Below are positions 5,902 through 64,000 of a stretch of DNA of 64,000 bases, in pieces (within the stretch, counting starts at the first letter, position 1; every line of letters starts with the position of its first letter). The stretch covers positions 2,144,891-2,208,890 of the forward strand of contig NZ_ML214297.1 in the NCBI RefSeq assembly GCF_004698125.1, read 5' to 3'. This DNA is from Halosimplex halophilum (lineage in GTDB: Archaea; Halobacteriota; Halobacteria; Halobacteriales; Haloarculaceae). The position numbers were made by a program, and so were the translations under genes. A model generated the notes under the pieces. It was given only the letters and a program-made list of their open reading frames with translations. It was not told the DNA's origin and searched no databases.

Positions 5902-7569
5902 ATGACACCTGCGAACGAGGGTCGCGATTCCGACGGGGGACAGGCACGGAACGGCGGGCGGACGGCGACCAGGCGGGGCGTGTTGCGCGCCGCGGGCGCC
6001 GGGGCCGCGGGCGTCGCGCTCGGCGGGATCTCCGGTACCGCTGCGGCCGACGAGGGGACGCCGCCGCGGCTACACACAGAGGGCAAGTGGGTGCGAGACG
6101 CCGACGGCGAGGCGGTCAGGCTGCGCGGCCTCGCGACGGCGTCGATGGGGTTCTACGAGGTCGAGGACACCCACCCGAAGACGCCGACGGAGGTCGTCGG
6201 CTGGGCGAGCGACCCGGCCCGCGGCTGGTACCCCAACGTCGTCCGCCTGCCGGTCACCCAGTGGGACGTGGACCAGCTTGGCGTCGACGCGTTGGTCTCG
6301 GACGTGCTCCGGCCGGTGGTCGACCTGCTGGGCGAGCGGGGCACCTACGCGATGATCGACTACCACCTCATCCGCCCCTACACCGAGGCCGCCTCCGAGG
6401 ACGCCGGCTACGACACCAGCCCGGACGAGATCGTCCGGAACTTCTGGGGCGGCGTCGCGCCCGCGTTCGCCGACGACGAACACGTCCTCTACGAGCTGTT
6501 CAACGAACCGACCTACCCGATCTTCTGGAGCGACAACGGCGAGAACGTCGAGAGCCCCGAGGCGGAGTGGCTGCTGTGGCGCGAGACCGCTCAACCGTGG
6601 GTGGACATGGTCCGCGAGGAAGCCCCGGAGACGCCCATCGTCATCGGGTCGCCCAGCTGGACCTCCCGGACGAACTTCGCCCCGGAGTACCCCTTCGAGG
6701 GCGAGAACCTGGTCTACGCCGCCCACATCTACCCGGACAACGGCCAGCCCGACGAGTTCGACGACACCTACGGCGCGCCCGCCGAGGACGTGCCCGTCTT
6801 CGTCACCGAGTTCGGCTGGGACCCCTACAGCGACGGCCTCGACTACGGCACCAACACCGACTGGGGCCAGCCCTTCCGCGAGTGGGTCGAGAGCTACGAC
6901 AACATGGGGTGGGCCGCCTGGTGTTTCGACGACTCGTGGGCGCCGGCGATGTTCGACTCCCCCGGCGCGGGCGGCGCCGACGACTGGACGCTACGCTCGG
7001 CGCCCGAGGAACACGGCGGGTTCGTCCGCCAGTGGCTCGCCGAGACCTCCGAGGAACCCATCGCGCGTCTCGTACCGGGCAAGACCCAGGCCACGGAGGG
7101 CGACTGGGTCCAGTTCGAGGCCCGCGACGCCTCGGGCGCGGACAGCCACGTCTCCGGCCTGGAGTGGGACCTCGGGAACGGCGCCGCCGGTGAGGGCTGG
7201 TGGGTCGACGCCCAGTACGACGACCCCGGCCAGTACGAGGTACAGTTGACCGCGACGAACGACGCCGGCGAGTCGACGACCCACGGGCTGGCGATCACGG
7301 TCACCGAGCTGACCGACAAGGTCGCGAAGGCCGACCCGGGCGCGACCGACGTGGAGGTCGACGAAGCCGTGGCGTTCGAGGCCCGCGACACCACCGGCGA
7401 CGACCGCTGGGTCGACGCGCTCGCGTGGGAGTTCGGGGACGGGGCGACCGCCGAGGGCTGGTGGGCCTCCCACGCCTACGAGGCCGCGGGGACCTACACC
7501 GTGGCGCTCACGGCGACGGACAACACGGGCCACTCGACGACCCACGAGGTCGAGATCACCGTCGAGTGA
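5902..7569 (+). CDS. Secreted GH5 glycoside hydrolase with two PKD-like domains
   Basis: A 555-residue protein. Residues 24-50 form a Tat signal (TRRGVLRAAGAGAAGVALGG ending at AAADE). Residues 55-370 are a GH5 (beta/alpha)8 catalytic domain: the acid/base is the Glu of LFNEP and the nucleophile the Glu of VTEFGW. Two PKD-like domains follow (about 375-465 and 470-555; WDLGNG and WEFGDG motifs). GH5 enzymes of this type cut beta-1,4-glucans (cellulase) or related polymers outside the cell; the exact substrate is not decidable. A TATA-like GGTATTACGG (5867-5876) lies about 30 bases before the ATG, so a leaderless start is likely. It is related in domain logic to the glycosidases at 54-64 kb but lacks their shared module. 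Confidence 0.9.
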   Translation: MTPANEGRDSDGGQARNGGRTATRRGVLRAAGAGAAGVALGGISGTAAADEGTPPRLHTEGKWVRDADGEAVRLRGLATASMGFYEVEDTHPKTPTEVVGWASDPARGWYPNVVRLPVTQWDVDQLGVDALVSDVLRPVVDLLGERGTYAMIDYHLIRPYTEAASEDAGYDTSPDEIVRNFWGGVAPAFADDEHVLYELFNEPTYPIFWSDNGENVESPEAEWLLWRETAQPWVDMVREEAPETPIVIGSPSWTSRTNFAPEYPFEGENLVYAAHIYPDNGQPDEFDDTYGAPAEDVPVFVTEFGWDPYSDGLDYGTNTDWGQPFREWVESYDNMGWAAWCFDDSWAPAMFDSPGAGGADDWTLRSAPEEHGGFVRQWLAETSEEPIARLVPGKTQATEGDWVQFEARDASGADSHVSGLEWDLGNGAAGEGWWVDAQYDDPGQYEVQLTATNDAGESTTHGLAITVTELTDKVAKADPGATDVEVDEAVAFEARDTTGDDRWVDALAWEFGDGATAEGWWASHAYEAAGTYTVALTATDNTGHSTTHEVEITVE

Positions 7570-48944: not shown

Positions 48945-49994
48945 TCACTCCTCGACCGGCCGGAGCCGGACCGACTTCCCGCGATAGTCTTCGAGGAAGC
49001 CTCCGGGAGCGCCGACGCTGACGGTTCCCTCGTCGGTGTCGAGGACGAACCCGTTCTCCAGCGTGAACTGGTTGGTCGCGGGGTCGACCAGCGCCTGACG
49101 CACGTCGTTGACGCGCCCGGCGACGCGCTCGCCGGACTCGGTCTCGACCTCGGCGCGCAGGTCGGTCCCCATCCGCCGGTGGCGGACGGCGGTGAACGTC
49201 GCCTTGCGGAACCACTCGAACGTCGCCGGGAGCTCGGGCGGGTCGGCGACGTGGACTTCCCACGGGAACGGCCAGTAGGCGCCGAGGAAGGTGGCGATGA
49301 CCGCGCCGGTCAGGCCCCACTCCGAGACCCAGACGACCCCCTCCTCGAAGTAGGCGCCGTCGAACACCTCGGGGCTGCCGATCATCGCCCGCTCGTCGTC
49401 GGCGGCGTAGGCGAACGCCATCTCGTCGCCCCAGCAGCGCACCACCGTCGCGAGCCCCGCGTAGCGCTCGGCCGCCCGGTCGAGGTCGTCGACCTCGCCG
49501 ACCAGCAGGAGGACGAGCGCCCCGCGCTCGCGGGCCGCGCGCAGCTCCGACTCGACCTCCGGGACCACGTCCGCCGGCACCGAGACCAGCACCTCCGACT
49601 CCGCGCTCTCGACGTCCTCCCGGAGGTTCTTCAGCGCCTTCCGCCGGGACTTGGCCATCTCGATCTCCGAGGTGCGCGGCCCGGTCTCGGTGAACCGCTC
49701 CTCCAGCGCGGGGGTCATCGCGTCGATGCGCTCGGAGATGTCGGCCATCGCCTCCCGCGGCGGGAGCGCGCGGATCGTCGTCGGCGAGACGTGGTCGTTG
49801 ACCCGGACGAGCCCCCGCTGTTCGAGGCGCTCGACGATGTTGTACACCGTCCGCTGGGTGACGCCCGCCTCGTCGGCGACGGCGCTGGTCGTCGCCTCGC
49901 CCAGCTCCAGCAGCGCGAAGTACGTGTTGATCTCGTTGTCCGAGAGCCCGAACACCCGCAACTGTTCGCGCAGCGCCGCGTCGTCGGAGTCCAT
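48945..49994 (-). CDS. TrmB-family regulator with C-terminal sensor domain
   Basis: A 349-residue regulator. The winged helix is at residues 8-75 (LRVFGLSDNEINTYFALLEL, then AGVTQRTVYNIVERLEQRGL), a coiled linker at 85-115, and a long C-terminal part: ESEVLVSVPADVVPEVESEL, CWGDEMAFAYAADDERAMIG, and a final beta-rich TrmB effector-binding portion (ATFLGAYWPFPWEVHVADPP onward). Members bind sugars and switch sugar transport and metabolism genes. It is encoded just downstream of an orphan solute-binding protein in the same direction, 174 bases apart. A minus-strand TATA-like GGATTAC is about 25 bases before its ATG. Confidence 0.88.
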   Translation of the reverse strand: MDSDDAALREQLRVFGLSDNEINTYFALLELGEATTSAVADEAGVTQRTVYNIVERLEQRGLVRVNDHVSPTTIRALPPREAMADISERIDAMTPALEERFTETGPRTSEIEMAKSRRKALKNLREDVESAESEVLVSVPADVVPEVESELRAARERGALVLLLVGEVDDLDRAAERYAGLATVVRCWGDEMAFAYAADDERAMIGSPEVFDGAYFEEGVVWVSEWGLTGAVIATFLGAYWPFPWEVHVADPPELPATFEWFRKATFTAVRHRRMGTDLRAEVETESGERVAGRVNDVRQALVDPATNQFTLENGFVLDTDEGTVSVGAPGGFLEDYRGKSVRLRPVEE

Positions 49995-50168: not shown

Positions 50169-52334
50169 TTACCCCTCCTCCGGCGGTTCGAACTCGGTGT
50201 CGTAGCTGGCCTGGGCGATCCCGCCCAGCACGAGCACGTCCTCGATGCCGAACGAGCGCTCGTAGTCGAACGCCCGCGCCGAGGGGCCGGGCCAGTCGAA
50301 GTCGCGGACGTTCCCGAACGACCCCTGCATGTACTGGTGGAACGGGAAATGCGGGACGTAGAAGTTGTAGTACTTCGCGCAGGTGCGGTACAGCTGCTGG
50401 CGTTCCGCCTCGGAGTTGCCCGGCTGGCGGATCCTGTTGACCGTCTCGACGAGGTTGACCTCGGTCGCGTCGTCCAGATCGGGCGACTTCCCGGCCTCCT
50501 CGGGCGCGTCGAAGGCGCCGGGCTCGTTCGGGACCTGCTGGACGATCGGCTTGCCCTGGGTGTCGACGGTGTCCTCGGGCTTGGCCTCGAAGGGGTCCGG
50601 CGCGGTCGGGCTGCCGGCGACGAGCGTCTCGTCCCACCAGGCGCCCACGTCGTGGTAGTACTGGAAGACGTACGGGTCGCCGTGCCAGTACAGCGACGAC
50701 TCGTAGTTGAGCCCGCCGTTGGGGTCCAGGTTGTTCGACCACGTGTTCCAGCCCTGCGTCGAGAGGTTCACGCCGAAGCCCCAGTTGGCCAGGTTCGCCC
50801 GGATCGTCTGGGCCGCCTGGATGTGTTCGGGGATCGTCGACGTGGCGAACAGGTCGATCTCGGCGGCGTTGCCCGAGGGGTCGACCCACTGGCCGCCCTG
50901 CTTGCTGTACCCCGCGTTTCGCATGTACTGGTCGGCGTTCTCGACGTTCCGCTCGCGCGAGTAGGTGTGGAGGCCGTCGAGGAACTCCTCTGAGAAGACC
51001 GCCTCCGACTGGGCGTCCAGCAGGAACGTGTCGTGGGCGAGCGGCTGGGCGCCGCCCTCCCCCCAGCCGTTCTGAGAGACCGCGTTCCAGTCGACGGCCT
51101 CGACCAGCGCCCGGCGCACCCAGAGGTTCGCCAGGTGCGGGTTGTTCCAGTTGAACTTCCACATGTCCCCGCCGGTGGCGCGCAGCCACCGGGTGAACTC
51201 CTGCATGTAGTCGGGCAGCACTTCCCGGTTCAGCGACGCGCCGGGCGACACGTCACCGACGTTCACGTCGAGGACGCCCTCGGTCTTCAGCGTCTCCGCG
51301 CGGTCGCCCTCCGCCCAGTAGATGGCGAGCTTCTCGACGTTGGTGTTCCCGGCGTTCGGATGCTCCGGGTCGAGGTGGAGGACCATCCGCTCGGAGCCCA
51401 CGTCGTCCATCGACTCCAGCCGGTAGGGCCCGGTGCCGGCGAGGTACTCGTCGGTGCCGCCCGAGAGCGCGATGCGGTCGAGGGAGACCCGGTCGCTTTT
51501 CAGCTCATCGGTCACCGACGTCACCTGGTCGCGCGACCCCGCGTCGCGGTACCGCTCCAGGTACGGCTCCGTGAACGACGGATGCAGCGGCGGGTCGCCG
51601 TCGACCGGCCCGGCGTTCGTCTCCAGGATGTTCCGCGCGGTCGGGTCCGGCTCCTGCTCGGGGACCGACCCCTTGTCCGTCCACCGGTGGAGCGTCCACT
51701 GCTCCTCGGCGCGCTGGTTGAACGTGGCGTCCTCCGTGAACTTGTTCCCGGCCTGGAAGAACTCGACGTGGTTGTGTTTCTCGCGGGCGACCGCGTCGTG
51801 GGGGTCGCCGTTCCAGTAGGCCGACCGGTCGTCGTGGTGGTCGTACCAGTCGAAGGGCGGTTCGACCTCGGTCCCCTCGATCCACGTCATGATCTCGATC
51901 TCCTCGTGGTCGGGCTTGTGCGGCGTCGGCACCGTCGTCCCCGAGTACGACAGGTTCGTCGTGTGGACGTTCCGCAGCCCGTGGAGGTCCGACATCCACA
52001 GGTCCCCGGCCGTGTTGTCCTGGGGCGTCCAGGGGTTCCAGTCGAACACGTCCGGGGAGTTCGCGTGCGCGTAGGCGATCGTGTCGACGACCGGCTCGCG
52101 GTCCGTCGCCGTCGGCGCCGCCGTGTTCCCCGACCCGTTGGCCACCGTGTTCTCACGCTCGATCGGCTCGACCGTGTCGTCGCTCGACCCCGGCGTCGCC
52201 GTCGACCCGCTCTCGCTCGGACAGCCGGCCAGCCCGGCCGCGCCCAGCCCCGCGATCAACTGTGCGTACCGGCGACGCGAGACGCCGCCCGTCGAGTCGC
52301 CGCCCGCCTCGCCACCCTCGTTATTGGCTACCAT
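50169..52334 (-). CDS. ABC transporter solute-binding protein, family 5, Tat lipoprotein
   Basis: A 721-residue binding protein. Residues 20-38 are a Tat lipoprotein signal (RRRYAQLIAGLGAAGLAGC; the Cys at 38 would be lipidated). The large two-domain SBP_bac_5 fold follows, including DVNVGDVSPGASLNREVLPD and WVRRALVEAVDWNAVSQNGW, the usual hinge regions. Family 5 proteins bind oligopeptides or, in several archaea and Thermotoga, cello- and other oligosaccharides. No permease or ATPase gene is present here, so partners must be elsewhere. With a TrmB regulator downstream and glycosidases nearby, an oligosaccharide role is reasonable but unproven. Confidence 0.87.
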   Translation of the reverse strand: MVANNEGGEAGGDSTGGVSRRRYAQLIAGLGAAGLAGCPSESGSTATPGSSDDTVEPIERENTVANGSGNTAAPTATDREPVVDTIAYAHANSPDVFDWNPWTPQDNTAGDLWMSDLHGLRNVHTTNLSYSGTTVPTPHKPDHEEIEIMTWIEGTEVEPPFDWYDHHDDRSAYWNGDPHDAVAREKHNHVEFFQAGNKFTEDATFNQRAEEQWTLHRWTDKGSVPEQEPDPTARNILETNAGPVDGDPPLHPSFTEPYLERYRDAGSRDQVTSVTDELKSDRVSLDRIALSGGTDEYLAGTGPYRLESMDDVGSERMVLHLDPEHPNAGNTNVEKLAIYWAEGDRAETLKTEGVLDVNVGDVSPGASLNREVLPDYMQEFTRWLRATGGDMWKFNWNNPHLANLWVRRALVEAVDWNAVSQNGWGEGGAQPLAHDTFLLDAQSEAVFSEEFLDGLHTYSRERNVENADQYMRNAGYSKQGGQWVDPSGNAAEIDLFATSTIPEHIQAAQTIRANLANWGFGVNLSTQGWNTWSNNLDPNGGLNYESSLYWHGDPYVFQYYHDVGAWWDETLVAGSPTAPDPFEAKPEDTVDTQGKPIVQQVPNEPGAFDAPEEAGKSPDLDDATEVNLVETVNRIRQPGNSEAERQQLYRTCAKYYNFYVPHFPFHQYMQGSFGNVRDFDWPGPSARAFDYERSFGIEDVLVLGGIAQASYDTEFEPPEEG

Positions 52335-52362
52335 GGTTCGTGCCCTACTGTGGCCCACCCCT

Positions 52363-54472: not shown

Positions 54473-56314
54473 CTACTCCAGCCGGACGCCGCCGACCCGC
54501 AGGGTACCGGTTCCGCCCTGCCAGAAGTTCAGCCGCAGCGAGAGGTCCCCCACAGAGCGGTCGACCCCCGCCGACGCCATGTCGACGACGACCGGCGAGA
54601 GCGAGGTACCGATCGAGTCGTCGGTCACGTCGGCGAGCAGTCCGCTGGCGCCGCCCATGCTGAAGCGGATCTCCGACCCCTCGCCCCCGTCCGCGCCGGC
54701 AACCGTGAGGACGAGCGTGTCGTAGTCGCTCACGTCACGGTTGATCTGCTCCTGGTACCAGCCGCCGTTGTCGTACGCTAACACGAGCGCGCCGTCCTCG
54801 ACCTCGCCGGAGCCGTTCTCGAAGGACTCGGCGCCGCACCACTGTCCGAGGTCGTTGCGATGGGACGACCACGCCGGGTCCCCGTCGTAGTCGTTGACCA
54901 CCAGCGCGTCGCTCGCCGGCGTGTCGGTCGGCGTCTCCGGCTCGTCGGTCGGCGTCGCCGTCGACGTGGGGCCGCTGGGCGTCGGCGTGTCCGTCGGCGC
55001 GGGCGTGGCCGTCGGCGGCGGCGTCGCGGTCGAGGTGCCGGTGGGCGTCGCGGTGGCCGTGTCGGAGTCGGTGTCCGTATCGACCTCGCCGGCGGGCACG
55101 TCCTCGTCGCGGTGGGCGGCGAGTTCCTCCCGCCAGAACTCGCCGTACTCCTTGACCGACCAGTCGTGGTCGAGCATCGCCGGTCGCCACTTGCTGTCGA
55201 AACACCAGACCTGCCAGTGGACGTCGTAGTCGGCGAAGAAGTCGAGGAACTCCTGGCCCTCGTCGTCGGCGGTCCCGGTGATGTAGTCGGCGCCGTGCTC
55301 GCCCCAGCCGAACTCGGTCACGAACACCGGCACCTCCTCGGCGGGCGTCCCGAAGTACTCCGAGAGCGGGCGGAGGTTCTGATGGCCGTAGACGTGGCCG
55401 GTGTAGGCGAGGTTGTCGCCGTCGAACTCGTTTCTCGGCGCCTGGTAGGTCCACTGGCTCCACCGGGGCGAGCCGATCAGGACCAGGTTCCGCGGGGCGT
55501 GCTCGCGGATGGTGTCGACCCACGGCTGGGCGGCCTCCCTCCAGGTGTTCCACGTCTCGATGGCCTCGTCGTCGTTCGGCGCCACGTCGACGTTCGGCTC
55601 GTAGTGGCCCTGGTAGGGGTGGATCGGCTCGTTGTACACCTCGAAGAGGACGTGCGACTCGTCGGCGAACTCCGGGGCCACCGTCTCCCAGAACATCGTC
55701 AGCTCCTCGTCGATGCCCTCGCTGGTGTAGGCGTGCTCGTCGTCCTGGCCGCGGTGGCGGTGGTAGTCGACGATGCAGTAGACGTTCTGCTCCGCACAGG
55801 TGTCGACGGCCGGGCGGAGGTGGTTCTCGACGTACCGTTCGAGCTGGGACTGCGAGAAACCGGGGACCGGCGGGATACCGCCGGGGTCGTGGTCCCCCAC
55901 GTCGGTCGGCTGGATCGGGAGGCGGACGATCCGCGAGTACCACCCCTCGTCGGCGCTGGTCGCCCGTTCGATGGTCTCGTCGGCGTCGGGGCGAAAGTCC
56001 TTGACGTTCATCCGCCTGGCGTCGGGGACGTTCACCCCCCGGAGGATCACCTTGTTGTCGCTGGGGTCGCGGATCAGGTTGCCGTCGCGGTGGAGCCACG
56101 GCGTGGGAATGCCGTCGGCGGCGGCGCTGCCGGTGATCCCGACGCCGAGCGCCGTCGCGGCGCCCGCCCCCGCGGCCGTCCGCAGGAACCTCCGCCGGGA
56201 GACGGCGTCGACGCGGTCGCTGAGGCCGTCGGCGGACCCGGCGGTTCCGTGGGTCCGGTCGCGCTCGGGTCGGTCGTCGGTCGATTCGTCGGGTCGTGGT
56301 CGTTCGTGTGACAT
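54473..56314 (-). CDS. Secreted GH5 glycoside hydrolase (cellulase-like) with C-terminal shared module
   Basis: A 613-residue enzyme. The Tat signal RRRFLRTAAGAGAATALGVG begins at residue 40 and ends at SAAADG. Residues 70-395 are a GH5 barrel with the acid/base Glu in VYNEPIHPY and the nucleophile in VTEFGWGEHG; VDYHRHRGQDDEHAY near 160 fits cellulase-type subfamilies. A Thr/Pro/Ser linker (about 410-465) leads to a 145-residue module (469-613) present in four other proteins of this cluster. Closely related in catalytic domain to the GH5 at 5902. It is last in the leftward run of polysaccharide-degrading genes. Confidence 0.9.
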   Translation of the reverse strand: MSHERPRPDESTDDRPERDRTHGTAGSADGLSDRVDAVSRRRFLRTAAGAGAATALGVGITGSAAADGIPTPWLHRDGNLIRDPSDNKVILRGVNVPDARRMNVKDFRPDADETIERATSADEGWYSRIVRLPIQPTDVGDHDPGGIPPVPGFSQSQLERYVENHLRPAVDTCAEQNVYCIVDYHRHRGQDDEHAYTSEGIDEELTMFWETVAPEFADESHVLFEVYNEPIHPYQGHYEPNVDVAPNDDEAIETWNTWREAAQPWVDTIREHAPRNLVLIGSPRWSQWTYQAPRNEFDGDNLAYTGHVYGHQNLRPLSEYFGTPAEEVPVFVTEFGWGEHGADYITGTADDEGQEFLDFFADYDVHWQVWCFDSKWRPAMLDHDWSVKEYGEFWREELAAHRDEDVPAGEVDTDTDSDTATATPTGTSTATPPPTATPAPTDTPTPSGPTSTATPTDEPETPTDTPASDALVVNDYDGDPAWSSHRNDLGQWCGAESFENGSGEVEDGALVLAYDNGGWYQEQINRDVSDYDTLVLTVAGADGGEGSEIRFSMGGASGLLADVTDDSIGTSLSPVVVDMASAGVDRSVGDLSLRLNFWQGGTGTLRVGGVRLE

Positions 56315-56396
56315 CGGTCGAAAAATTCGGGTCGCGGTTCGCGGGAACGCCGCGACTGCCGCGAGGGCGTCCCCGGAGTGGAGCGTCCGGTCGCGG

Positions 56397-58247
56397 TCAG
56401 TTCGGCACCCGGTAGGTCAGGTCGATGGCGTCGATGATCGGGTCGTTGCGGTTCAGGTCCGTCTCCAGCTCGACGTGCAGCGAGTCGAGCATCGTGTCGA
56501 CGAGGTCCTGCCGTTCGGCGCTCGTCGACCACGCGCTCCCGTCGCGGGGCGTCCCGATCTCCATCGCGACGCTCTGTCCGGGGTAGATCGTCCGCATGTG
56601 GTACGGCTCGTCGTGGTTGGCCAGCCGGACGGCGTACACCGACAGCTCGTCGTAGTCCGGGTGGTTCACCTCGATCACGTCGCGCTGGGGGTGGCCCAGC
56701 GACGCGCTCGGACGGTGGGGGTTGTTCCAGTGGCCGTCCGAGAGATTGGCGGCGTCGCCCGACGGGCCGAGCCACCAGATGACCGCCGCGTCCTGGAAGT
56801 ACGGCACCTCGCTGGTGTTCTTCAGCTTGATGTACTGGTTGAGGTAGCTCCCGCCGGTCTCGTGGATGCGGATCTCCGCCGCCATCGGCGCCGTTGCAGT
56901 GAACCCGTCGCCGCCGAGCGACTCGCCGGTCACCGGGTCGACCTTCTCGGCCGCGGCGTCCAGCACCGGATTCGTCTCGTCGTTGTAGACCGAGTCGGGG
57001 AGGTTCCCCGAACTACCCCACTCGCGGCTGTCGTCGTACTGGGGCTGGTCGTGGGCGCGGTCGCGCACGCGGACCTCCATCGGCTGGTAGGTCCGGGCGT
57101 CGGTCGGCCAGCGGTCCTGGACGAACTGGTCGGGGTCGTTCGTCGCCGCGGTCGGCCCGGCTGTCTCGTCCCACACGGTCTCGGGCTCGTCGTGGACGCC
57201 GGGGTCCTCCTCCTCGTCGGGCAACAGCGCCAGCCGCGGGAGCAGCTTCACCGTCGCGTGGGCCGGGAAGTCGTTCTCGGCGAGCTGTTTCACGTACGGC
57301 AGCGCCTGGGTGCCCAGCTGACCCAGCGTCAGCGACCCGTCGCCGACGTTGTTCTCGACGGCGCTCACGTCGTAGCCGAACTCCTCGGCCTTCTCGGAGT
57401 CGGTCCACTCCTGGAGCTTCGAGCCCGTCTCGCCCGGCAGGTAGTCCGTGAAGTCCCGCGGGACGTAGTAGGGGTCGTCGAAGTGCTCGTACAGCTCCGC
57501 TACGGTCGTGCTCTCGGTGATCTCCGAGGCCGGCGGCAGCGAGTCGGGTTCCGGCGGCCGGTCGGGGAACGGCACGTCCCAGGTGCTCCCGTCGTCGGGC
57601 GCGTCCGTCGGCGTGTCGTCGTCGGGTTCGTCGGTGGGTGTGTCGTCCTCCGGCGTGTCGGTCGGCGTGTCCGTCGGCGTCGACGGGTCCGTCGGCGTCG
57701 GCGTCGCGGTCGACGGCGGCGCCTCGCCGTCGCTCGTGAACGCGATGCGGTCGATCTCGACCGCCCCCGACTCGCCCTGCCAGAAGTTCAGCCGGACGGA
57801 CTGCGGACGCTCCAGGTCGGCGCCGGCCGCCGCGAGGTCGACCGACACCGTCGACCACTCCGTCCCGATCGCGTCGTCGGTGAGGTTGCCGAGCAGGTCC
57901 CTGGCGCCCCCCACGTCGACCAGGAAGTCGCTCTCCTCGCCGCCGGCGTCCCCGCGGACCCGCATCGTCAGGTGTCCGCGGTCGGCGACCGACTGCGAGA
58001 CGTTGCTCGCGAACCAGCCGGCGTTGTCGTACTCCAGTCGGAGCGCGCCGTCGGCGACCTCGCCGCTGCCGTCGCCGTTGGCGAAACTCCCCGCGCCGGC
58101 CCAGTTGCCCAGGTCGTTCGACCCGGGATAGCTCCCCCCGTCGAAGTCGTGGACGACCAGCGCGGACTCCTGGGCCAGGGCCGTCGAGGCCAGCCCCAGG
58201 CTTCCGAATGCGATACCCCCCTTCAGTACGGTTCGTCTGTCGACCAT
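56397..58247 (-). CDS. Secreted protein of unknown family with N-terminal shared module
   Basis: A 616-residue protein. Residues 3-27 are a Tat signal (DRRTVLKGGIAFGSLGLAST). The shared module (subtype B, LVVHDFDGGSYPGSNDLGNW) is at 28-171, followed by an acidic Thr/Pro linker (172-225). Residues 226-616 belong to no family I recognise: motifs include DPYYVPRDFTDYLPG, VKLLPRLALLPDEEEDPGVH, AAEIRIHETGGSYLNQYIKL, AAVIWWLGPSGDAANLSDGH and MRTIYPGQSVAMEIGTPRDG. Company of GH5 and GH10 enzymes suggests a polysaccharide role. ATG 58247 is chosen because GTTAAATTTAAC (58275-58286) upstream is its likely TATA element; GTG 58259 is the alternative. Confidence 0.82.
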   Translation of the reverse strand: MVDRRTVLKGGIAFGSLGLASTALAQESALVVHDFDGGSYPGSNDLGNWAGAGSFANGDGSGEVADGALRLEYDNAGWFASNVSQSVADRGHLTMRVRGDAGGEESDFLVDVGGARDLLGNLTDDAIGTEWSTVSVDLAAAGADLERPQSVRLNFWQGESGAVEIDRIAFTSDGEAPPSTATPTPTDPSTPTDTPTDTPEDDTPTDEPDDDTPTDAPDDGSTWDVPFPDRPPEPDSLPPASEITESTTVAELYEHFDDPYYVPRDFTDYLPGETGSKLQEWTDSEKAEEFGYDVSAVENNVGDGSLTLGQLGTQALPYVKQLAENDFPAHATVKLLPRLALLPDEEEDPGVHDEPETVWDETAGPTAATNDPDQFVQDRWPTDARTYQPMEVRVRDRAHDQPQYDDSREWGSSGNLPDSVYNDETNPVLDAAAEKVDPVTGESLGGDGFTATAPMAAEIRIHETGGSYLNQYIKLKNTSEVPYFQDAAVIWWLGPSGDAANLSDGHWNNPHRPSASLGHPQRDVIEVNHPDYDELSVYAVRLANHDEPYHMRTIYPGQSVAMEIGTPRDGSAWSTSAERQDLVDTMLDSLHVELETDLNRNDPIIDAIDLTYRVPN

Positions 58248-58274
58248 TGCAGAATACACATACGGCCGATAGCT

Positions 58275-58286
58275 GTTAAATTTAAC
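58275..58286 (-). promoter_or_regulatory. Palindromic TATA element GTTAAATTTAAC
   Basis: A perfect 12-bp palindrome about 30 bases upstream of the ATG at 58247, in a strongly AT-rich island (58270-58310). It shows that the unknown secreted protein has its own promoter within the glycosidase cluster, and the palindromic TATA could double as an operator. Confidence 0.55.
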
Positions 58287-58431
58287 GAATAGAAAAATAA
58301 TTTTTGCGGAACGCTAACCACGCCGGGTCGAGCGGACCCGGCGACGGCCGGCCCCCGCAGCGCGGGCCGGAAACGGTGTGGAGGCGGGGCGAAGCCCCGG
58401 GGAACGGCAGCCGTGGAGCGGCGGGCGGTCC

Positions 58432-60069
58432 CTACTCTAATCGCACCTCCTCGATCCGCAGCGTGCTGGTTCCGCCCTGCCAGAAGTTCAGCCGCACCGA
58501 CAGCGCCGAGGACGACCGGTCGATCCCCGCCGCCGCCATGTCGACGCGCACGTCCGTCGCACTCGTCCCGACGGCGTCGTCGGTCACGTCGGCGAGCATG
58601 GTGCGGACCCCGCCCATGTCGAAGAGGACCTCCGACTCTTCGCCCCCGTCCGCGCCGCTGACGCGCAGGACGAGGTCGCTGTAGCCGTCGACCGGCCGGT
58701 TGATCTGCTCCTGGAACCAGCCGCCGTTGTCGTACGCTAACACGAGCGCGCCGTCCTCGACCTCGCCGCCGCCGTTCTCGAAGGACCCGGCCCCGCACCA
58801 CTGTCCGAGGTCGTTGCGATGGGACGACCACGCCGGGTCCCCGTCGTAGTCGTTGACCACCAGCGCGTCAGCCGCCGGGGTGTCCGTCGGCGTCTCCGGC
58901 TCGTCGGTCGGCGTCGGGGTCTCCGGTTCGTCCGTGGGCGTCGGCGTGTCGGGCTCGTCCGTCGGTGTCCCCGGTTCGTCGGTCGGCGAGTCCGTCGCGG
59001 TCCCGCCGTCGCCGAGCCGGCTGTAGACGACCGAGAAGTAGTCGCTGGCCGTGTAGCTGTCGGCCGAGCAGTCGTCGCCCCAGTACGGCGAGGCCATGTT
59101 CATCGGGTCCGCCGAGCCGTCGCCGTTCCAGGCCCAGCCGACGACCGGCCAGCCCAGCTCGCTCGCGTAGTCGACGATGGCCGACCAGTCGGCGCCCGTC
59201 GAGTTCGCGTAGTTGCCGAACTCCCCGATCATGCAGGGGTAGCTCGTCTCGTCCATCGCGTCGAGGTCCTCCGGGACGAGGTACTCCCCCGTCGTCGCGT
59301 TCCACGCGCTGGGGTAGACGTGCGCCGAGAGGATCAGGTCGTCGTCGTCGATCCCCTCGGCGGCGTCGGCCAGGCGGTAGGTGCCCTGGCCCCACCCGGG
59401 CGCGTCGCAGACGATCGGCCCCGAGTAGCTCGTCTCCGAGCGGACGGTGCCGATCGCCTCGTCGTACGCGTCGGCGTACTCCCCGGCGGTCACCTGGTGG
59501 TTGCCCCACTCGTTCATCATGTTCACCGTGAACGAGGTGTCGGCCGAGAGCGTCTCGTAGTGCTCCGCCCAGAACTCCGCCGCGTTCTGGAGCGCCGCGG
59601 CACTGGCCGACCCGTTGTCGGGGTAGTGGTGGTACGTGGCGATCACGTCCAGCCCGTGGGCCGCGGCCTCGTCGATCCAGCGCTTGGCGTCCTCGACCGT
59701 CGTGGCGACCTCGCCGAAGTCGAACGGCTCGATCTCGATCCGGACCGTCTCGATGTCCGGGTACTCCGCCATGAGGTCGTAGCCCAGGTCCTGGTCCCCG
59801 TCGCAGAAGTACGACGGCTGGAGGTTGACGCCGTCGCCGAACGAGGCGCCGGCGGCCGTCGACACGGTCGCGCCGAGCGTGCCGACCGCGCCGAGCGCGA
59901 CGCCGCCGCCGAGCCCGCGCAGCACCGTCCGCCGCCGCGGGCCGCCGTTCGACGCGTCACCGCCGCCGCCCGGTGCGTCGCCGCTGCCACCGGACCGGGC
60001 GCGGTCGACCGCCCGGCCGCGTCGCTGTTCGCCGTCCTGTGCCTGTCGTGGTGAGTCGTCGGAGTCCAT
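58432..60069 (-). CDS. Secreted GH5 mannanase-like enzyme with C-terminal shared module
   Basis: A 545-residue enzyme. The Tat signal RRRTVLRGLGGGVALGAVGT starts at residue 45 after a long hydrophilic leader. The catalytic domain (75-355) starts with GVNLQPSYFC and has DVIATYHHYPD, the acid/base in NMMNEWGNH and the nucleophile in MIGEFGNY, then GWPVVGWAWNGDG; this GEFG and WAWNG pattern resembles GH5_8 beta-mannanases, though subfamily assignment needs alignment. A Thr/Pro/Glu linker (358-400) connects to the shared module (402-545, subtype A). It lies 99 bases downstream of the GH10 xylanase gene in the same direction. Confidence 0.88.
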   Translation of the reverse strand: MDSDDSPRQAQDGEQRRGRAVDRARSGGSGDAPGGGGDASNGGPRRRTVLRGLGGGVALGAVGTLGATVSTAAGASFGDGVNLQPSYFCDGDQDLGYDLMAEYPDIETVRIEIEPFDFGEVATTVEDAKRWIDEAAAHGLDVIATYHHYPDNGSASAAALQNAAEFWAEHYETLSADTSFTVNMMNEWGNHQVTAGEYADAYDEAIGTVRSETSYSGPIVCDAPGWGQGTYRLADAAEGIDDDDLILSAHVYPSAWNATTGEYLVPEDLDAMDETSYPCMIGEFGNYANSTGADWSAIVDYASELGWPVVGWAWNGDGSADPMNMASPYWGDDCSADSYTASDYFSVVYSRLGDGGTATDSPTDEPGTPTDEPDTPTPTDEPETPTPTDEPETPTDTPAADALVVNDYDGDPAWSSHRNDLGQWCGAGSFENGGGEVEDGALVLAYDNGGWFQEQINRPVDGYSDLVLRVSGADGGEESEVLFDMGGVRTMLADVTDDAVGTSATDVRVDMAAAGIDRSSSALSVRLNFWQGGTSTLRIEEVRLE

Positions 60070-60168
60070 GGGTCGTGTCTCGCCTGTGTCGTGTCTCGCG
60101 TGGGGTGTCGCCGGACGGGCGCCGCGGCGGACCGCCGGCGATGTGTCGCCGACCCGCCGCCGCGGCCG

Positions 60169-62868
60169 TCAGGAGACGGTGACTTCGACCGTGTCGGTGG
60201 TCGAGGCGCCCTCGTTGTTCGTCGCGGTCAGTTCGACGGTGTAGGTGCCCGCCGAGCCGTAGGTCGCCTCGGCGTACCAGCCGCTGGCCGACTCGCCGTT
60301 GCCCAGGCTCCAGGACAGCGAGTCGACCCAGTTGCCCGACTCGGTGGTGTCGGTCACGCGGAAGCTGACCCGCTCGCCGACCGACGCCGAGGTCGCGCTC
60401 GGGTCGATCTCCGCGACGAGGTCGCCGCTCGACCCGTCGGAACCGTCCGACCCGTCCGACCCGTCGGAGCCGTCGGAGCCGTCCGACCCGTCGCCGCCCC
60501 CGCCGGAGCCGCCGAAGGCGATGCGGTCGATCTCGACCGCCCCCGACTCGCCCTGCCAGAAGTTCAGCCGGACGGACTGGGGGTCGTCGAGGTCGGCACC
60601 GGCCGCCGCGAGGTCGACCGACACCGTCGACCACTCCGTCCCGATCGCGTCGTCCGTGAGGTTGCCGAGCACGTCGCTCGCGCCGCCGACCTGGACGGTG
60701 AAGTCGTCCTCCTCGCCGCCCGCGTCGCCGCGGACGCGGAGGCGCAGCGTCGGCCGGTCGGCGACCGACCGCGTGACGTTCGACCCCATCCAGCCGGCGT
60801 TGTCGTACTCCAGCCGGAGCGCGCCGTCCGACACGTCGCCGCTGCCGCCGCCGTTGGCGAAGCTACCGCCGTCGGCCCAGTTGCCCAGGTCGTTCGACCC
60901 GGGGTAATTGCCGCCGTCGAACTCGTGGACGACCAGCGCGTCGCCGGCCGGCTCGTCGGTCCCGTCCTCGCCGTCGCCGGCGGCGTCGGTCGTCGCCGTG
61001 ACGGTCGCGGCGTCGGACTCGTTGCCGGCGGCGTCAACCGCCGAGACGCCGACCGTGTAGCTCGTCTCGGCCGACAGCCCCTCGACGGTCGCCGTCGTCA
61101 TGCCCGCACCCACGGTCTGGTCCTCGCTGCCGTCGACGTAGACGACGTACTCCGAGAGACCGGCGGAGCCGTTGTCGGAGACGCCCTCCCAGGTGACCGT
61201 CACCGTCGAGTCGGTCGTCGCCGACACCGAGAGGTCCTCCGGTACCGACGGCGGCTGGGTGTCGTCGCTCCCCTCTCCGTCGCCCTCGACGGTGACCGTC
61301 ACGGTCGTCGTGCCCGACGCGTCCGACACGGAGACCGTCTCCGTGGTCTCGCCGCTGTCGGTGCTGACCGTGACCTCGTGCTCGCCGAGGAAGGCGGTCG
61401 TCGCGTAGGCGCCCGAGCCGTCGGTCGTCCCGCTGTCGTCGGTCCACCACTCGTCGTAGACGAGGCCAGTCCACACGTCGTAGGCGGGTTTCTGCGACCA
61501 GTCGTCGTAGAACAGCGGCGCCTCGTTCTCCCAGTGGCGGCCGTCCCAGAAGCCCCACATGATGAAGTCGTCGCAGCCGGGGTGGGAGAAGGCGCCCCGC
61601 AGGTAGTTCTCCAGCATCTGCGCGCGCTCCTCGTCGTCCTCCCAGTCGTCGCCGTTGTACGTGTCGAACTCCGTGATCTTCAGTCGGCCGCCCAGGTCGG
61701 CCCACTTGTTCATCTCCTCGGCGACCTGGGCGGCGCTGATCCGGCCGTCCGGGTCGTCGTTGCTGTTGAACTCCCCCTGTCGGGCGGCGACGTGAGCCTG
61801 TAGCCCGACGGTGTCGACCTGAACGGCGTTGGAGTTGATGTGCTGGATCTCGTTCTGATACCGGTTGTCGGTGTAGGCGTAGGGGAACTGGTTGAAGTCG
61901 TTGACGGCGATCCCCAGGTCGTAGCCGTTCTCGCTGATGACCGATTCGGCCTTGTCGTACCAGTCGGCCAGCAGCTGGGAACTCCAGGGGACGACCTCGC
62001 CGGTCCAGGGCTCCTCGGTGTCGATCTGGTCGCCGTAGACGCCGATCTGCATCTGGTAGACGTGCATCGCCTCGTTGACGACCTCCCACTCGGTCAGGTC
62101 GTCGCCGTAGTGGGTGATGATCTCCTCGATGTGGGCCATCGACCGCTCGCGGATCGTCTCGGCGTCGTTGTTGTCGATCGCGGTCTGGATGTCCGAGGGG
62201 ATGGCGCCGACGTCCTCGCGACCCCACAGGCAGACGTGCCCGCGCATGTCCAGCCCCTGGTCCAGGACCCACTGGGTCGCCTCGTCGGCCAGCGCCTGCT
62301 CGTTCTCGAAGAAGTCCCACTTGTGGCGGTTCTCCATCACCGCCTTGTTGAACAGCTCCGGGATGTACGTCCGGTAGTTGTCCCCCTCGCTGGAGCTGTT
62401 GATCAGCGTGTTGGCGTTGACGGCCGTCCCGAAGCCGAACTGGTGTTCCCGCTGGGAGACCGAGACCTCCGCCCCCGAGACCGTCGAACCGTCGGGGTTC
62501 TCGACGACCACTTCGAGGTCGCCTGTCCGGTGTTCCCGGATGCGCTCGTCGACCGTCTTCGACGTGTCGGCCGTCTCCGCGGCCGCCGTCCCCGTCCCGG
62601 CGCTACCGAGGCCGGCCATCGCGGCGGCCGCCAGCGACGCCTTCAGGTAGTCCCGCCGGTCCATCGACGCCAGCGCCTCGGCGGCCTCCTCGTCTACGAC
62701 CTCCGGGTCGTCCACGTCTGCGACCTCGGGGCCGCCCGCGTCGCACCGCTCGGCCTCGATCCCGTCCGCATCGGCCGCTTCGATGTCGGTTTTGTCGGCC
62801 GATCCGTCGGCCGTCGGTACGTCTGTCCCGTCCGTCTGTGCTCGGTCGGATGTGTCGTCGTTCGTCAT
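60169..62868 (-). CDS. Secreted GH10 xylanase with FN3, shared module and PKD domain
   Basis: An 899-residue modular enzyme. A 68-residue acidic extension precedes the Tat signal (DRRDYLKASLAAAAMAGLGS). The GH10 domain (about 105-470) has REHQFGFGTAVNANTL, the acid/base in WEVVNEAMHVY and the nucleophile in KITEFDTYNGD. Then come a small beta domain, an FN3 domain (about 535-625), the shared module (641-784, subtype B), a GSD repeat linker and a PKD domain (815-899). GH10 enzymes cut beta-1,4-xylan. ATG 62664 (MDRRDYLKAS) is a possible alternative start that removes the extension. Its neighbour upstream is a second GH10 gene, 30 bases away. Confidence 0.9.
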   Translation of the reverse strand: MTNDDTSDRAQTDGTDVPTADGSADKTDIEAADADGIEAERCDAGGPEVADVDDPEVVDEEAAEALASMDRRDYLKASLAAAAMAGLGSAGTGTAAAETADTSKTVDERIREHRTGDLEVVVENPDGSTVSGAEVSVSQREHQFGFGTAVNANTLINSSSEGDNYRTYIPELFNKAVMENRHKWDFFENEQALADEATQWVLDQGLDMRGHVCLWGREDVGAIPSDIQTAIDNNDAETIRERSMAHIEEIITHYGDDLTEWEVVNEAMHVYQMQIGVYGDQIDTEEPWTGEVVPWSSQLLADWYDKAESVISENGYDLGIAVNDFNQFPYAYTDNRYQNEIQHINSNAVQVDTVGLQAHVAARQGEFNSNDDPDGRISAAQVAEEMNKWADLGGRLKITEFDTYNGDDWEDDEERAQMLENYLRGAFSHPGCDDFIMWGFWDGRHWENEAPLFYDDWSQKPAYDVWTGLVYDEWWTDDSGTTDGSGAYATTAFLGEHEVTVSTDSGETTETVSVSDASGTTTVTVTVEGDGEGSDDTQPPSVPEDLSVSATTDSTVTVTWEGVSDNGSAGLSEYVVYVDGSEDQTVGAGMTTATVEGLSAETSYTVGVSAVDAAGNESDAATVTATTDAAGDGEDGTDEPAGDALVVHEFDGGNYPGSNDLGNWADGGSFANGGGSGDVSDGALRLEYDNAGWMGSNVTRSVADRPTLRLRVRGDAGGEEDDFTVQVGGASDVLGNLTDDAIGTEWSTVSVDLAAAGADLDDPQSVRLNFWQGESGAVEIDRIAFGGSGGGGDGSDGSDGSDGSDGSDGSDGSSGDLVAEIDPSATSASVGERVSFRVTDTTESGNWVDSLSWSLGNGESASGWYAEATYGSAGTYTVELTATNNEGASTTDTVEVTVS
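60427..60492. repeat. 9-bp tandem repeat coding a GSD linker
   Basis: About seven copies of a nonamer of the GACCCGTCC/GAGCCGTCG kind encode Gly-Ser-Asp triplets in the linker between the shared module and the PKD domain of the xylanase. Such a run can vary in length by slippage. Confidence 0.8.
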
Positions 62869-62898
62869 AGTTCCGTGTGTGCCTGTGTGGTTCGCGCG

Positions 62899-64000
62899 CT
62901 ATTCGAGCCGGATCTCCGCGATCCGCAGCGTGCTGCTACCGCCCTGCCAGAAGTTGAGCCGCACCGAGAGATCCCCCACAGAGCGGTCGATCCCCGCCGA
63001 CGCCAGGTCGACGCGGACTTCCCCCGTGCTCGTGCCGATGGCGTCGTCGGTGACGTTCGAGAGCATGGTCCGCACCCCGCCCATGTCGAAGAGGATTTCC
63101 GACTCCTCGCCGCCGTCCGCGCCGCCGACCTCGAACACCAGCGTCGAGTACGCCTCGATCGACCGATTGATCTGCTCCTGGAACCAGCCGCCGTTGTCGT
63201 ACTCCAGAACGAGCGCACCGTCCTCGACCTCGCCGGAGCCGTTCTCGAAGGACCCGGCGCCGCACCACTCGCCCAGGTCGTTGCGGTGGCTCGACCAGCC
63301 CGGGTCCCCGTCGTAGTTGTCGACGACCAGCGCGTCGGCCGGCTCGTCGCTCCCGCCGTCGTCACTCGCGTCGGTCGCGGCCGTGACGGTCGCGGCGTCG
63401 GACTCGTTGCCCGCCCCGTCGACCGCCGCGACACCGATCTCGTAGGCCGTGTCGGCCGACAGTCCCTCGACGGTCGCCGTCGTCATGCCCGCACCCACGG
63501 TCTGGTCCTCGCTCCCGTCGACGTAGACGACGTACCCGTCCAGCCCCGAAGAGCCGTTGTCGGAGACGCCCTCCCAGGTGACCGTCACCGTCGAGTCGGT
63601 CGTCGCCGACACCGAGAGGTCCTCCGGTACCGACGGCGGCTGGGTGTCTCCCGTGTCGCCGCCGCCCTCGACGGTGACGGTGACGGTAGTCGTCCCCGAA
63701 GCCTCGGACAGCGAGACGGGTTCGGTCGTCTCGCCGCTGTCGGTGCTGACCGTGACCTCGTGCTCGCCGAGGAACGCCGTCGTCGCGTAGGCGCCCGAGC
63801 CGTCGGTCGTCCCGCTGTCGTCGGTCCACCACTCGTCGTAGACGAGGCCGGTCCACACGTCGTAGGCGGGTTTCCGCGACCAGTCGTCGTAGAACAGCGG
63901 CGCCTCGTCCTTCCAGTGGTCGCCGTCCCAGAAGCCCCACATGACGAAGGCGTCGACGCCGGGGTGGGAGAACGCACCGCGCAGATAGTTCTCGGTCACG
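62899..64000 (-). CDS. Second GH10 xylanase, C-terminal part (5' end outside window)
   Basis: At least 367 codons are visible; the gene continues beyond the right edge. The visible part begins in the last strand and helix of a GH10 domain (LRGAFSHPGVDAFVMWGFWD, EAPLFYDDWSRKPAYDVWTG), then the same small beta domain and FN3 domain as the neighbouring xylanase, and ends in a shared module of subtype A (the last 146 residues). Large stretches match the neighbouring gene almost base for base (around 63560-63650 and 61180-61262), which shows recent duplication or conversion. The catalytic Glu residues lie outside the window, so activity cannot be judged. Confidence 0.88.
   Translation of the reverse strand, partial: VTENYLRGAFSHPGVDAFVMWGFWDGDHWKDEAPLFYDDWSRKPAYDVWTGLVYDEWWTDDSGTTDGSGAYATTAFLGEHEVTVSTDSGETTEPVSLSEASGTTTVTVTVEGGGDTGDTQPPSVPEDLSVSATTDSTVTVTWEGVSDNGSSGLDGYVVYVDGSEDQTVGAGMTTATVEGLSADTAYEIGVAAVDGAGNESDAATVTAATDASDDGGSDEPADALVVDNYDGDPGWSSHRNDLGEWCGAGSFENGSGEVEDGALVLEYDNGGWFQEQINRSIEAYSTLVFEVGGADGGEESEILFDMGGVRTMLSNVTDDAIGTSTGEVRVDLASAGIDRSVGDLSVRLNFWQGGSSTLRIAEIRLE

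What the first reader, a model, noticed from the sequence alone, without database searches (positions are those of the whole stretch)
54476..63339. One putative carbohydrate-binding module shared by five adjacent secreted proteins, in two subtypes
A module of about 145 residues occurs at 54476-54908, 57735-58165, 58435-58868, 60515-60945 and 62902-63339. Subtype A begins LVVNDYDGDPAWSSHRNDLG (three copies, always C-terminal); subtype B begins LVVHEFDGGNYPGSNDLGNW (two copies, internal or N-terminal). Both have an NDLG.W core, a YDNxGW strand, a DDxIGT loop and a closing RLNFWQG...IxxIRL strand, a plan like the galactose-binding beta-sandwich of CBM11-type modules. I cannot place it in a named CBM family. 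Its fusion to GH5, GH10 and an unclassified domain predicts polysaccharide binding in high salt.
Basis: partly seen in the sequence, partly recalled or inferred. Interest (0 to 1): 0.75.

Follow-up and report, generated by a model that had tools for sequence, protein, structure and literature searches.

The report
Unnamed carbohydrate-binding module in haloarchaeal cellulases
Salt-loving archaea that eat plant polysaccharides carry a previously unnamed ~143-residue protein module on many of their secreted cellulases and xylanases; it is predicted to fold like known cellulose-binding modules and probably holds the enzymes onto their substrate, though binding has not been measured.

Summary
Five modules of 141-143 residues lie in five adjacent minus-strand secreted proteins, at the stated places to within about 10 bases. 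The window cuts the cluster: the genome has nine such proteins in a row (five GH5, two GH10, one GH12, one unclassified), one module each and none elsewhere. AlphaFold2 (pLDDT 97.5) gives the CBM beta-sandwich; nearest solved structures are CBM8, CBM30 and CBM11 (Z 13.7, 12.6, 11.3; 8-16% identity). No Pfam, NCBIfam or PDB sequence family reaches a cut-off; weak Pfam hits include CBM11 (0.0083). I collected 140 distinct copies: 21 of 391 haloarchaeal genomes, one actinobacterium, distant relatives in the same phylum. Partners are GH5, GH10, GH12, PL14, dockerin-like tails, and a conserved 390-residue domain ("X"). Elsewhere X carries a Pfam-confirmed CBM5/12 in the same slot. Best reading: a new sequence family of polysaccharide-binding CBM, shuffled among enzymes. 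Binding is untested; dbCAN/CAZy could not be searched. Side lead of higher interest: a genome matching Halococcoides cellulosivorans in size has 64 dockerin matches, many on secreted GHs, and a module-(cohesin-like)3-dockerin protein, a possible archaeal cellulosome.

The parts
54476..54904 (-). module copy 1, subtype A, C-terminal in p1
57738..58160 (-). module copy 2, subtype B, N-terminal right after the signal peptide in p2
58435..58863 (-). module copy 3, subtype A, C-terminal in p3 (sequence used for the AlphaFold2 model)
60514..60936 (-). module copy 4, subtype B, internal in p4 between FN3 and PKD
62902..63330 (-). module copy 5, subtype A, C-terminal in p5
54473..56314 (-). p1: TAT signal, GH5 (about 55193-55969), Thr/Pro-rich linker, module
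   Evidence: Pfam Cellulase 2e-29
56397..58259 (-). p2: signal, module, Thr/Pro/Asp linker, X domain (start codon may be the ATG 4 codons downstream)
56400..57587 (-). X domain of p2, about 396 residues, no Pfam or PDB sequence family; in 40/391 haloarchaeal genomes
58432..60069 (-). p3: TAT-like signal, GH5 (about 59119-59703), linker, module
   Evidence: Pfam Cellulase 7e-15
60169..62868 (-). p4: TAT signal, GH10 (about 61477-62445), FN3 (about 61009-61245), module, PKD (about 60175-60393)
62899..64000 (-). p5: GH10-FN3-module, 747 aa; cut by the window end (gene runs to G000:C1:2210032, i.e. window 65142)

Best explanation
The module is a carbohydrate-binding module, a beta-sandwich domain of about 143 residues that belongs to no family in Pfam. 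It is attached through flexible Thr/Pro/Asp linkers or FN3 domains to secreted (mostly TAT-exported) polysaccharide-degrading enzymes. By binding a beta-1,4-linked plant polysaccharide (most likely amorphous cellulose or a related glucan) it keeps the catalytic domain near insoluble substrate. Repeated copying and shuffling, with homogenisation inside a genome, has put nearly the same module on unrelated enzymes (GH5, GH10, GH12, PL14, X), which gives the whole cluster one shared targeting address. Shown: the copies, the fusions, the predicted fold, the swap with CBM5/12 on the X domain, the shuffling. Inferred: that it binds carbohydrate, which one, and that binding raises activity.
For: Fold: AlphaFold2 pLDDT 97.5, pTM 0.91, all-beta; best PDB matches over residues 1-143 are CBM8 Z 13.7, CBM30 12.6, CBM11 11.3, CBM4 11.3, CBM29 10.8, nearly all glycan-binding domains. 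Fusion partners are polysaccharide-degrading enzymes: GH5, GH10, GH12, GH5-CBM6, PL14; an actinobacterial copy is C-terminal after DUF4832-FN3. Slot swap: the p2 X domain carries this module in some haloarchaea and a Pfam-confirmed CBM5/12 plus PKD in others. Genome association: 20 of the 21 module genomes have an X protein, against 40 of 391 overall, hypergeometric p 1.6e-21 (not corrected for kinship). Organisms: Halosimplex carlsbadense carries it and grows on amorphous cellulose (PMC10267330). Sequence: aromatic at columns 12, 22, 44 and 49 in 90-100% of the weighted sequences, and Asn17 in all. Shuffling: modules 72-90% identical on GH5/GH10/GH12 domains that are at most 52% identical, while the twin GH10s p4/p5 are 83% identical but carry subtypes 53% alike.
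Against: No binding data. The beta-sandwich/galactose-binding-like fold is also used by non-lectin domains (complex I assembly factor and reelin rows). The position of the conserved aromatics on the ligand face was not checked, because model coordinates cannot be read here. Pfam is not CAZy: a CAZy-only family could already contain it.
Confidence: 0.86

Rival explanations
1. It is not a new family but a very divergent branch of an existing CBM family such as CBM11, CBM30 or CBM8, or a CAZy family without a Pfam model.
For: Weak Pfam hits: CBM11 in 4 of 32 members (best 0.0083), CBM60 0.017 and CBM30 0.049; a distant relative hits CBM11 0.02 and CBM30 0.07; the deeper profile A4 lists a xylanase CBM (3jxs 0.065) and CBM30 (2c24 0.27) first in PDB; same fold.
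Against: None reaches a curated cut-off; hhalign against the CBM11 sequence gives E 0.067 and probability 0.8%, not clearly better than CBM6 at 0.17; identities are 8-16%.
Confidence: 0.25
2. It is a galactose-binding-like domain that mediates protein-protein or cell-surface attachment (e.g. to S-layer glycans or to a partner in an enzyme complex) rather than substrate binding.
For: The same fold family holds non-carbohydrate roles; in some haloarchaea the module sits with dockerin-like domains.
Against: Its slot on the X domain is taken elsewhere by CBM5/12; it occurs on unrelated polysaccharide-active enzymes and in a bacterium; dockerin could already supply the anchoring role where both occur.
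Confidence: 0.07
3. It is a structural appendage that only stabilises the acidic enzymes in high salt.
For: Fused to many haloarchaeal enzymes.
Against: Long flexible linkers separate it from the catalytic domain; aromatic columns are conserved; a bacterial copy exists.
Confidence: 0.04

Closest known systems
CBM11 (PF03425; C. thermocellum Lic26A-Cel5E, PDB 1v0a)
   Same: Beta-sandwich of similar length aligned over residues 1-143, Z 11.3, rmsd 2.5 over 120 residues; attached to a GH5 enzyme; weak Pfam hits
   Different: 8% identity in the structural alignment; no member over the Pfam cut-off; hhalign not significant
CBM30 (PF21582; C. thermocellum Cel9D-Cel44A, PDB 2c24/1wmx)
   Same: Z 12.6, rmsd 2.5 over 127 residues, 16% identity; listed, not significant, by profile A4
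   Different: No Pfam member hit over cut-off (0.049 best); the solved CBM30 chain is about 30 residues longer
CBM8 (Dictyostelium, PDB 7t7y)
   Same: Top structural match, Z 13.7, rmsd 2.3 over 128 residues
   Different: 10% identity; no sequence match found
CBM5/12 (PF02839)
   Same: Occupies the same N-terminal slot on the X domain in other haloarchaea
   Different: A short (about 44 residue) unrelated module
Undetected domains of haloarchaeal GH5 proteins noted in PMC10267330
   Different: No module is defined or named in the text read

Membership tests
Carbohydrate-binding modules in general | Discrete domain attached to carbohydrate-active enzymes | tested here: met
   GH5, GH10, GH12, PL14, GH5-CBM6 fusions, separated by linkers
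Carbohydrate-binding modules in general | Folds as an independent unit of a CBM fold | tested here: met
   Prediction only: pLDDT 97.5 for the module alone; CBM structures dominate the top of the list, Z up to 13.7
Carbohydrate-binding modules in general | Demonstrated carbohydrate binding | not testable with these tools
   Needs a binding assay
CBM11 | Sequence match over the Pfam curated cut-off (PF03425, 27 bits) | tested here: not met
   32 diverse members scanned, best E 0.0083; no CBM11 match in the own genome (but that search also rang in no control genome)
CBM11 | Beta-sandwich fold | tested here: met
   Z 11.3 to 1v0a, prediction against crystal structure
CBM30 | Sequence match over the Pfam curated cut-off (PF21582, 27 bits) | tested here: not met
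   best 0.049; distant relative 13.5 bits
CBM30 | Fold | tested here: met
   Z 12.6 to 2c24
CBM8 | Fold | tested here: met
   Z 13.7 to 7t7y
CBM8 | Sequence membership | tested here: inconclusive
   No PDB sequence match to 7t7y; no CBM8 profile was compared
CBM60 | Sequence match over the Pfam curated cut-off (PF16841) | tested here: not met
   2 of 5 members matched, best E 0.017, no strong match; none listed among 32 diverse members
CBM6 | Sequence similarity to a Pfam-confirmed CBM6 | tested here: not met
   p6 carries both a CBM6 (4e-18) and the module as separate domains; hhalign E 0.17 over 13 columns
Any CAZy/dbCAN CBM family without a Pfam model | dbCAN HMM match | not testable with these tools
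   dbCAN is not among the libraries

The most novel reading that the evidence does not exclude
The module is the substrate-targeting part of a polysaccharide-degrading apparatus of haloarchaea that in some members is assembled like a cellulosome. In Halococcoides-type genomes the module is fused to dockerin-like domains, and one protein is module-(cohesin-like)3-dockerin, a scaffoldin candidate. The X domain would be a new secreted enzyme or binding class acting on both cellulose and chitin, with its CBM swapped to fit the substrate. The window's own organism uses the module without cohesin or dockerin.
Probability: 0.25. Interest if true: 0.85.

Novelty: new member of a known kind. Interest (0 to 1): 0.5.

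Why it matters
Published surveys of cellulose-eating haloarchaea noted undetectable extra domains on their GH5 enzymes (PMC10267330). This module accounts for many such stretches in the genomes examined here, gives a profile to annotate them, and marks genomes likely to degrade insoluble plant polysaccharide. Binding modules that work in near-saturated salt would be useful in high-salt or ionic-liquid biomass processing. It also points to two larger questions that can now be tested: what the conserved X domain does, and whether some haloarchaea build a cellulosome-like complex.

Tried and rejected
(1) Profile search of PDB sequences with 5, 32 and 17 rows: nothing significant. (3) CBM11 search of the own genome: no match, but the control genomes did not ring either, so uninformative. 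(4) Cohesin (PF00963) looked perfectly correlated with dockerin-bearing module genomes (8 of 8 against 0 of 13); the class-wide base rate is 137 of 381, high in one family, so this correlation is mostly kinship and is not used as evidence. (5) The long repeats in L028, L075 and L088 do not hit Pfam cohesin at E 0.1 nor the two Halococcoides cohesins by hhalign; only their profile against PDB gives a scaffoldin C chain, E 4e-4. (6) X domain fold: no clear match; the C-terminal half is weakly like CBM3/CBM2 beta-sandwiches (best Z 6.9), too low to rely on. An LPMO identity for X was considered: it lacks the N-terminal histidine of mature LPMOs because the module or CBM5/12 precedes it. (8) Promoter and terminator scans gave nothing that matters (the tool's promoter model is bacterial).

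Full report
Observation. The five modules are present in frame in five adjacent minus-strand ORFs: 54476-54904, 57738-58160, 58435-58863, 60514-60936 and 62902-63330. Alignment A1 has 58 invariant columns of 145. The window cuts the set: the host genome (4.47 Mb, 7 contigs, about 70% GC in the window, haloarchaeal) has nine modules, one in each of nine consecutive genes at G000:C1:2199363-2219109, and none elsewhere. Their domain plans are p1 GH5-module, p2 module-X, p3 GH5-module, p4 GH10-FN3-module-PKD, p5 GH10-FN3-module, p6 GH5-FN3-CBM6-FN3-FN3-module, p7 GH12-module, p8 GH5-module, p9 GH5-module. Most have a TAT-type signal. A TrmB-type sugar regulator lies at the upstream end of the cluster and another inside the window at 48945-49994.

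What it is by sequence. Pfam and NCBIfam find nothing over the module in the five proteins at E up to 1. Scanning 5 and 32 diverse copies gives only weak hits. The CBM-type ones are CBM60 0.017, CBM30 0.049, CBM11 0.0083 in 4 of 32 members, and CBM6 0.1; several unrelated families reach similar values, so these hits alone carry little weight. PDB sequence searches find nothing significant.

What it is by fold. AlphaFold2 with 32 homologues gives pLDDT 97.5 and pTM 0.91, an all-beta domain. Against solved structures, the best matches over residues 1-143 are CBM8 (Z 13.7, rmsd 2.3, 128 residues), CBM30 (12.6), CBM11 (11.3), CBM4 (11.3) and CBM29 (10.8), at 8-16% identity.

Where it occurs. A pattern scan of about 85,000 prokaryote genomes found relatives only in haloarchaea (Halosimplex, Halocatena, HArc-gm2, Natronoglomus mannanivorans, Halovivax, Actinarchaeum). 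A profile search of 391 haloarchaeal genomes found 21 with the module, and I extracted 140 distinct copies. One bacterial copy, 40% identical, sits at the C-terminus of a DUF4832-FN3 protein of Nonomuraea gerenzanensis. Two distant relatives occur in another family of the same phylum (hhalign E 5e-6), and one of these also brushes CBM11 and CBM30. Reach into bacteria was limited, because the only GTDB-wide scan uses short conserved peptides.

How it spreads. A tree of 103 copies groups the C-terminal subtype A in one clade (SH-aLRT 98), and the position of the module in the protein changes only 6 times on the tree. Copies cluster by genome in several species (six of one genome in one starred clade). 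In the host genome, modules on GH5, GH10 and GH12 enzymes are 72-90% identical although the catalytic domains are at most 52% identical; the two GH10 enzymes p4 and p5 are 83% identical but carry different subtypes (53%). This is domain shuffling with homogenisation.

The X domain and the slot swap. The 'unclassified' C-terminal part of p2 is a conserved domain of about 390 residues with no Pfam or PDB relative. It occurs in 40 of 391 haloarchaeal genomes, including 20 of the 21 that carry the module (hypergeometric p 1.6e-21, which ignores kinship). In other haloarchaea the same X domain follows a Pfam-confirmed CBM5/12 (PF02839, 34.0 bits, over the 26.2 cut-off) and a PKD domain; in Halocatena it stands alone. 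The module therefore occupies the place of a known chitin/cellulose-binding module. This is the strongest functional argument beyond the fold.

Literature. Cellulotrophic haloarchaea carry many GH5/GH10 genes; Halosimplex carlsbadense, which carries the module here, grows on amorphous cellulose, and the authors state that many GH5 proteins hold 'yet undetectable domains' (PMC10267330). The Natronoglomus paper tabulates most cluster GH5/GH10 proteins without a CBM and mentions galactose-binding-like and dockerin domains (PMC10963439). In the papers read I found no name for this module; the library lacks most subscription journals.

Mechanism. Shown: the copies, fusions, predicted fold, slot swap and shuffling. 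Inferred: the module binds a beta-1,4-glycan, most likely amorphous cellulose or a related glucan, through conserved aromatics (columns 12, 22, 44, 49; Asn17 invariant), so that every enzyme of the cluster is held on the same insoluble substrate. Which of these residues face the ligand was not checked.

Beyond the window. In genome G002 (2,723,120 bp, the size given for Halococcoides cellulosivorans HArcel1 in PMC10267330) Pfam dockerin rings 64 times, against 0 in the host genome and up to 18 in the other module genomes. Of 42 dockerin-bearing ORFs examined, 17 are GH5, 4 GH10, 2 GH43, and GH9, GH16 and PL14 one each, and the dockerin is C-terminal. One G002 protein is module-three repeats-dockerin (L088); a profile of these and similar repeats matches a scaffoldin C chain in PDB at E 4e-4, though Pfam cohesin does not ring. 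This is a lead for an archaeal cellulosome-like system, not a result; single cohesins are common in haloarchaea (137 of 381).

Verdict. A real, widespread, unnamed CBM-type module: a new member of a known kind. Confidence in carbohydrate binding 0.86; in a new family as against a divergent known one about 0.7.

Noticed in passing
window 56400-57587 (-); L123-L152: X domain: about 390 residues, highly conserved (45-53% across families) with RDRxHDQ, GHPQRD and HDxPYxxRT motifs, no Pfam/PDB family, in 40/391 haloarchaeal genomes; carries either this module, a CBM5/12, or nothing. AlphaFold2 pLDDT 75; C-terminal half weakly CBM3/CBM2-like. Candidate new secreted enzyme or binding class for cellulose and chitin.
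   Followed up: partly
L085-L088 and L173-L192 (genome G002, size equals Halococcoides cellulosivorans): 64 Pfam dockerin matches in one archaeal genome; of 42 dockerin ORFs examined, 17 GH5, 4 GH10, 2 GH43, GH9, GH16, PL14; L088 is module-(cohesin-like repeat)3-dockerin. Possible archaeal cellulosome; no paper in the library joins haloarchaea, dockerin and cohesin except one unrelated review.
   Followed up: partly
L173 (G002:C1:2196219-2198362): Neighbouring pair: a 502-aa secreted beta-helix-like protein with cohesin and C-terminal dockerin, and a 208-aa signal-cohesin-transmembrane protein, i.e. apparently a membrane-anchored cohesin.
   Followed up: no
L028/L076 (Natronoglomus mannanivorans), 1801-aa ORF: GH5 followed by about eight near-identical 130-residue repeats and then the module; repeats without a Pfam family.
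   Followed up: partly
L077, L078, L081-L085 (natronoarchaea and G002): Conserved gene pair: a short signal-module-dockerin protein (239-266 aa) next to the module-X protein.
   Followed up: partly
window 6220-6930 (+): A further GH5 match (Pfam 7e-27, frame of 572 aa) in the window, far from the cluster; the module search places no module copy there.
   Followed up: no
window 48945-49994 (-) and 50169-52358 (-): TrmB-type sugar regulator and an SBP_bac_5 solute-binding protein close to the cluster; a second TrmB-type regulator at its other end (G000:C1:2219503-2220573).
   Followed up: partly
L094 (genome G664, same phylum, other family): Two adjacent secreted/lipoprotein-like proteins with C-terminal domains distantly related to the module and to CBM11/CBM30; a possible bridge between the families.
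   Followed up: partly
class-wide search: Pfam cohesin is over its cut-off in 137 of 381 haloarchaeal genomes, often in short frames of 220-340 aa, and very common in one family.
   Followed up: no
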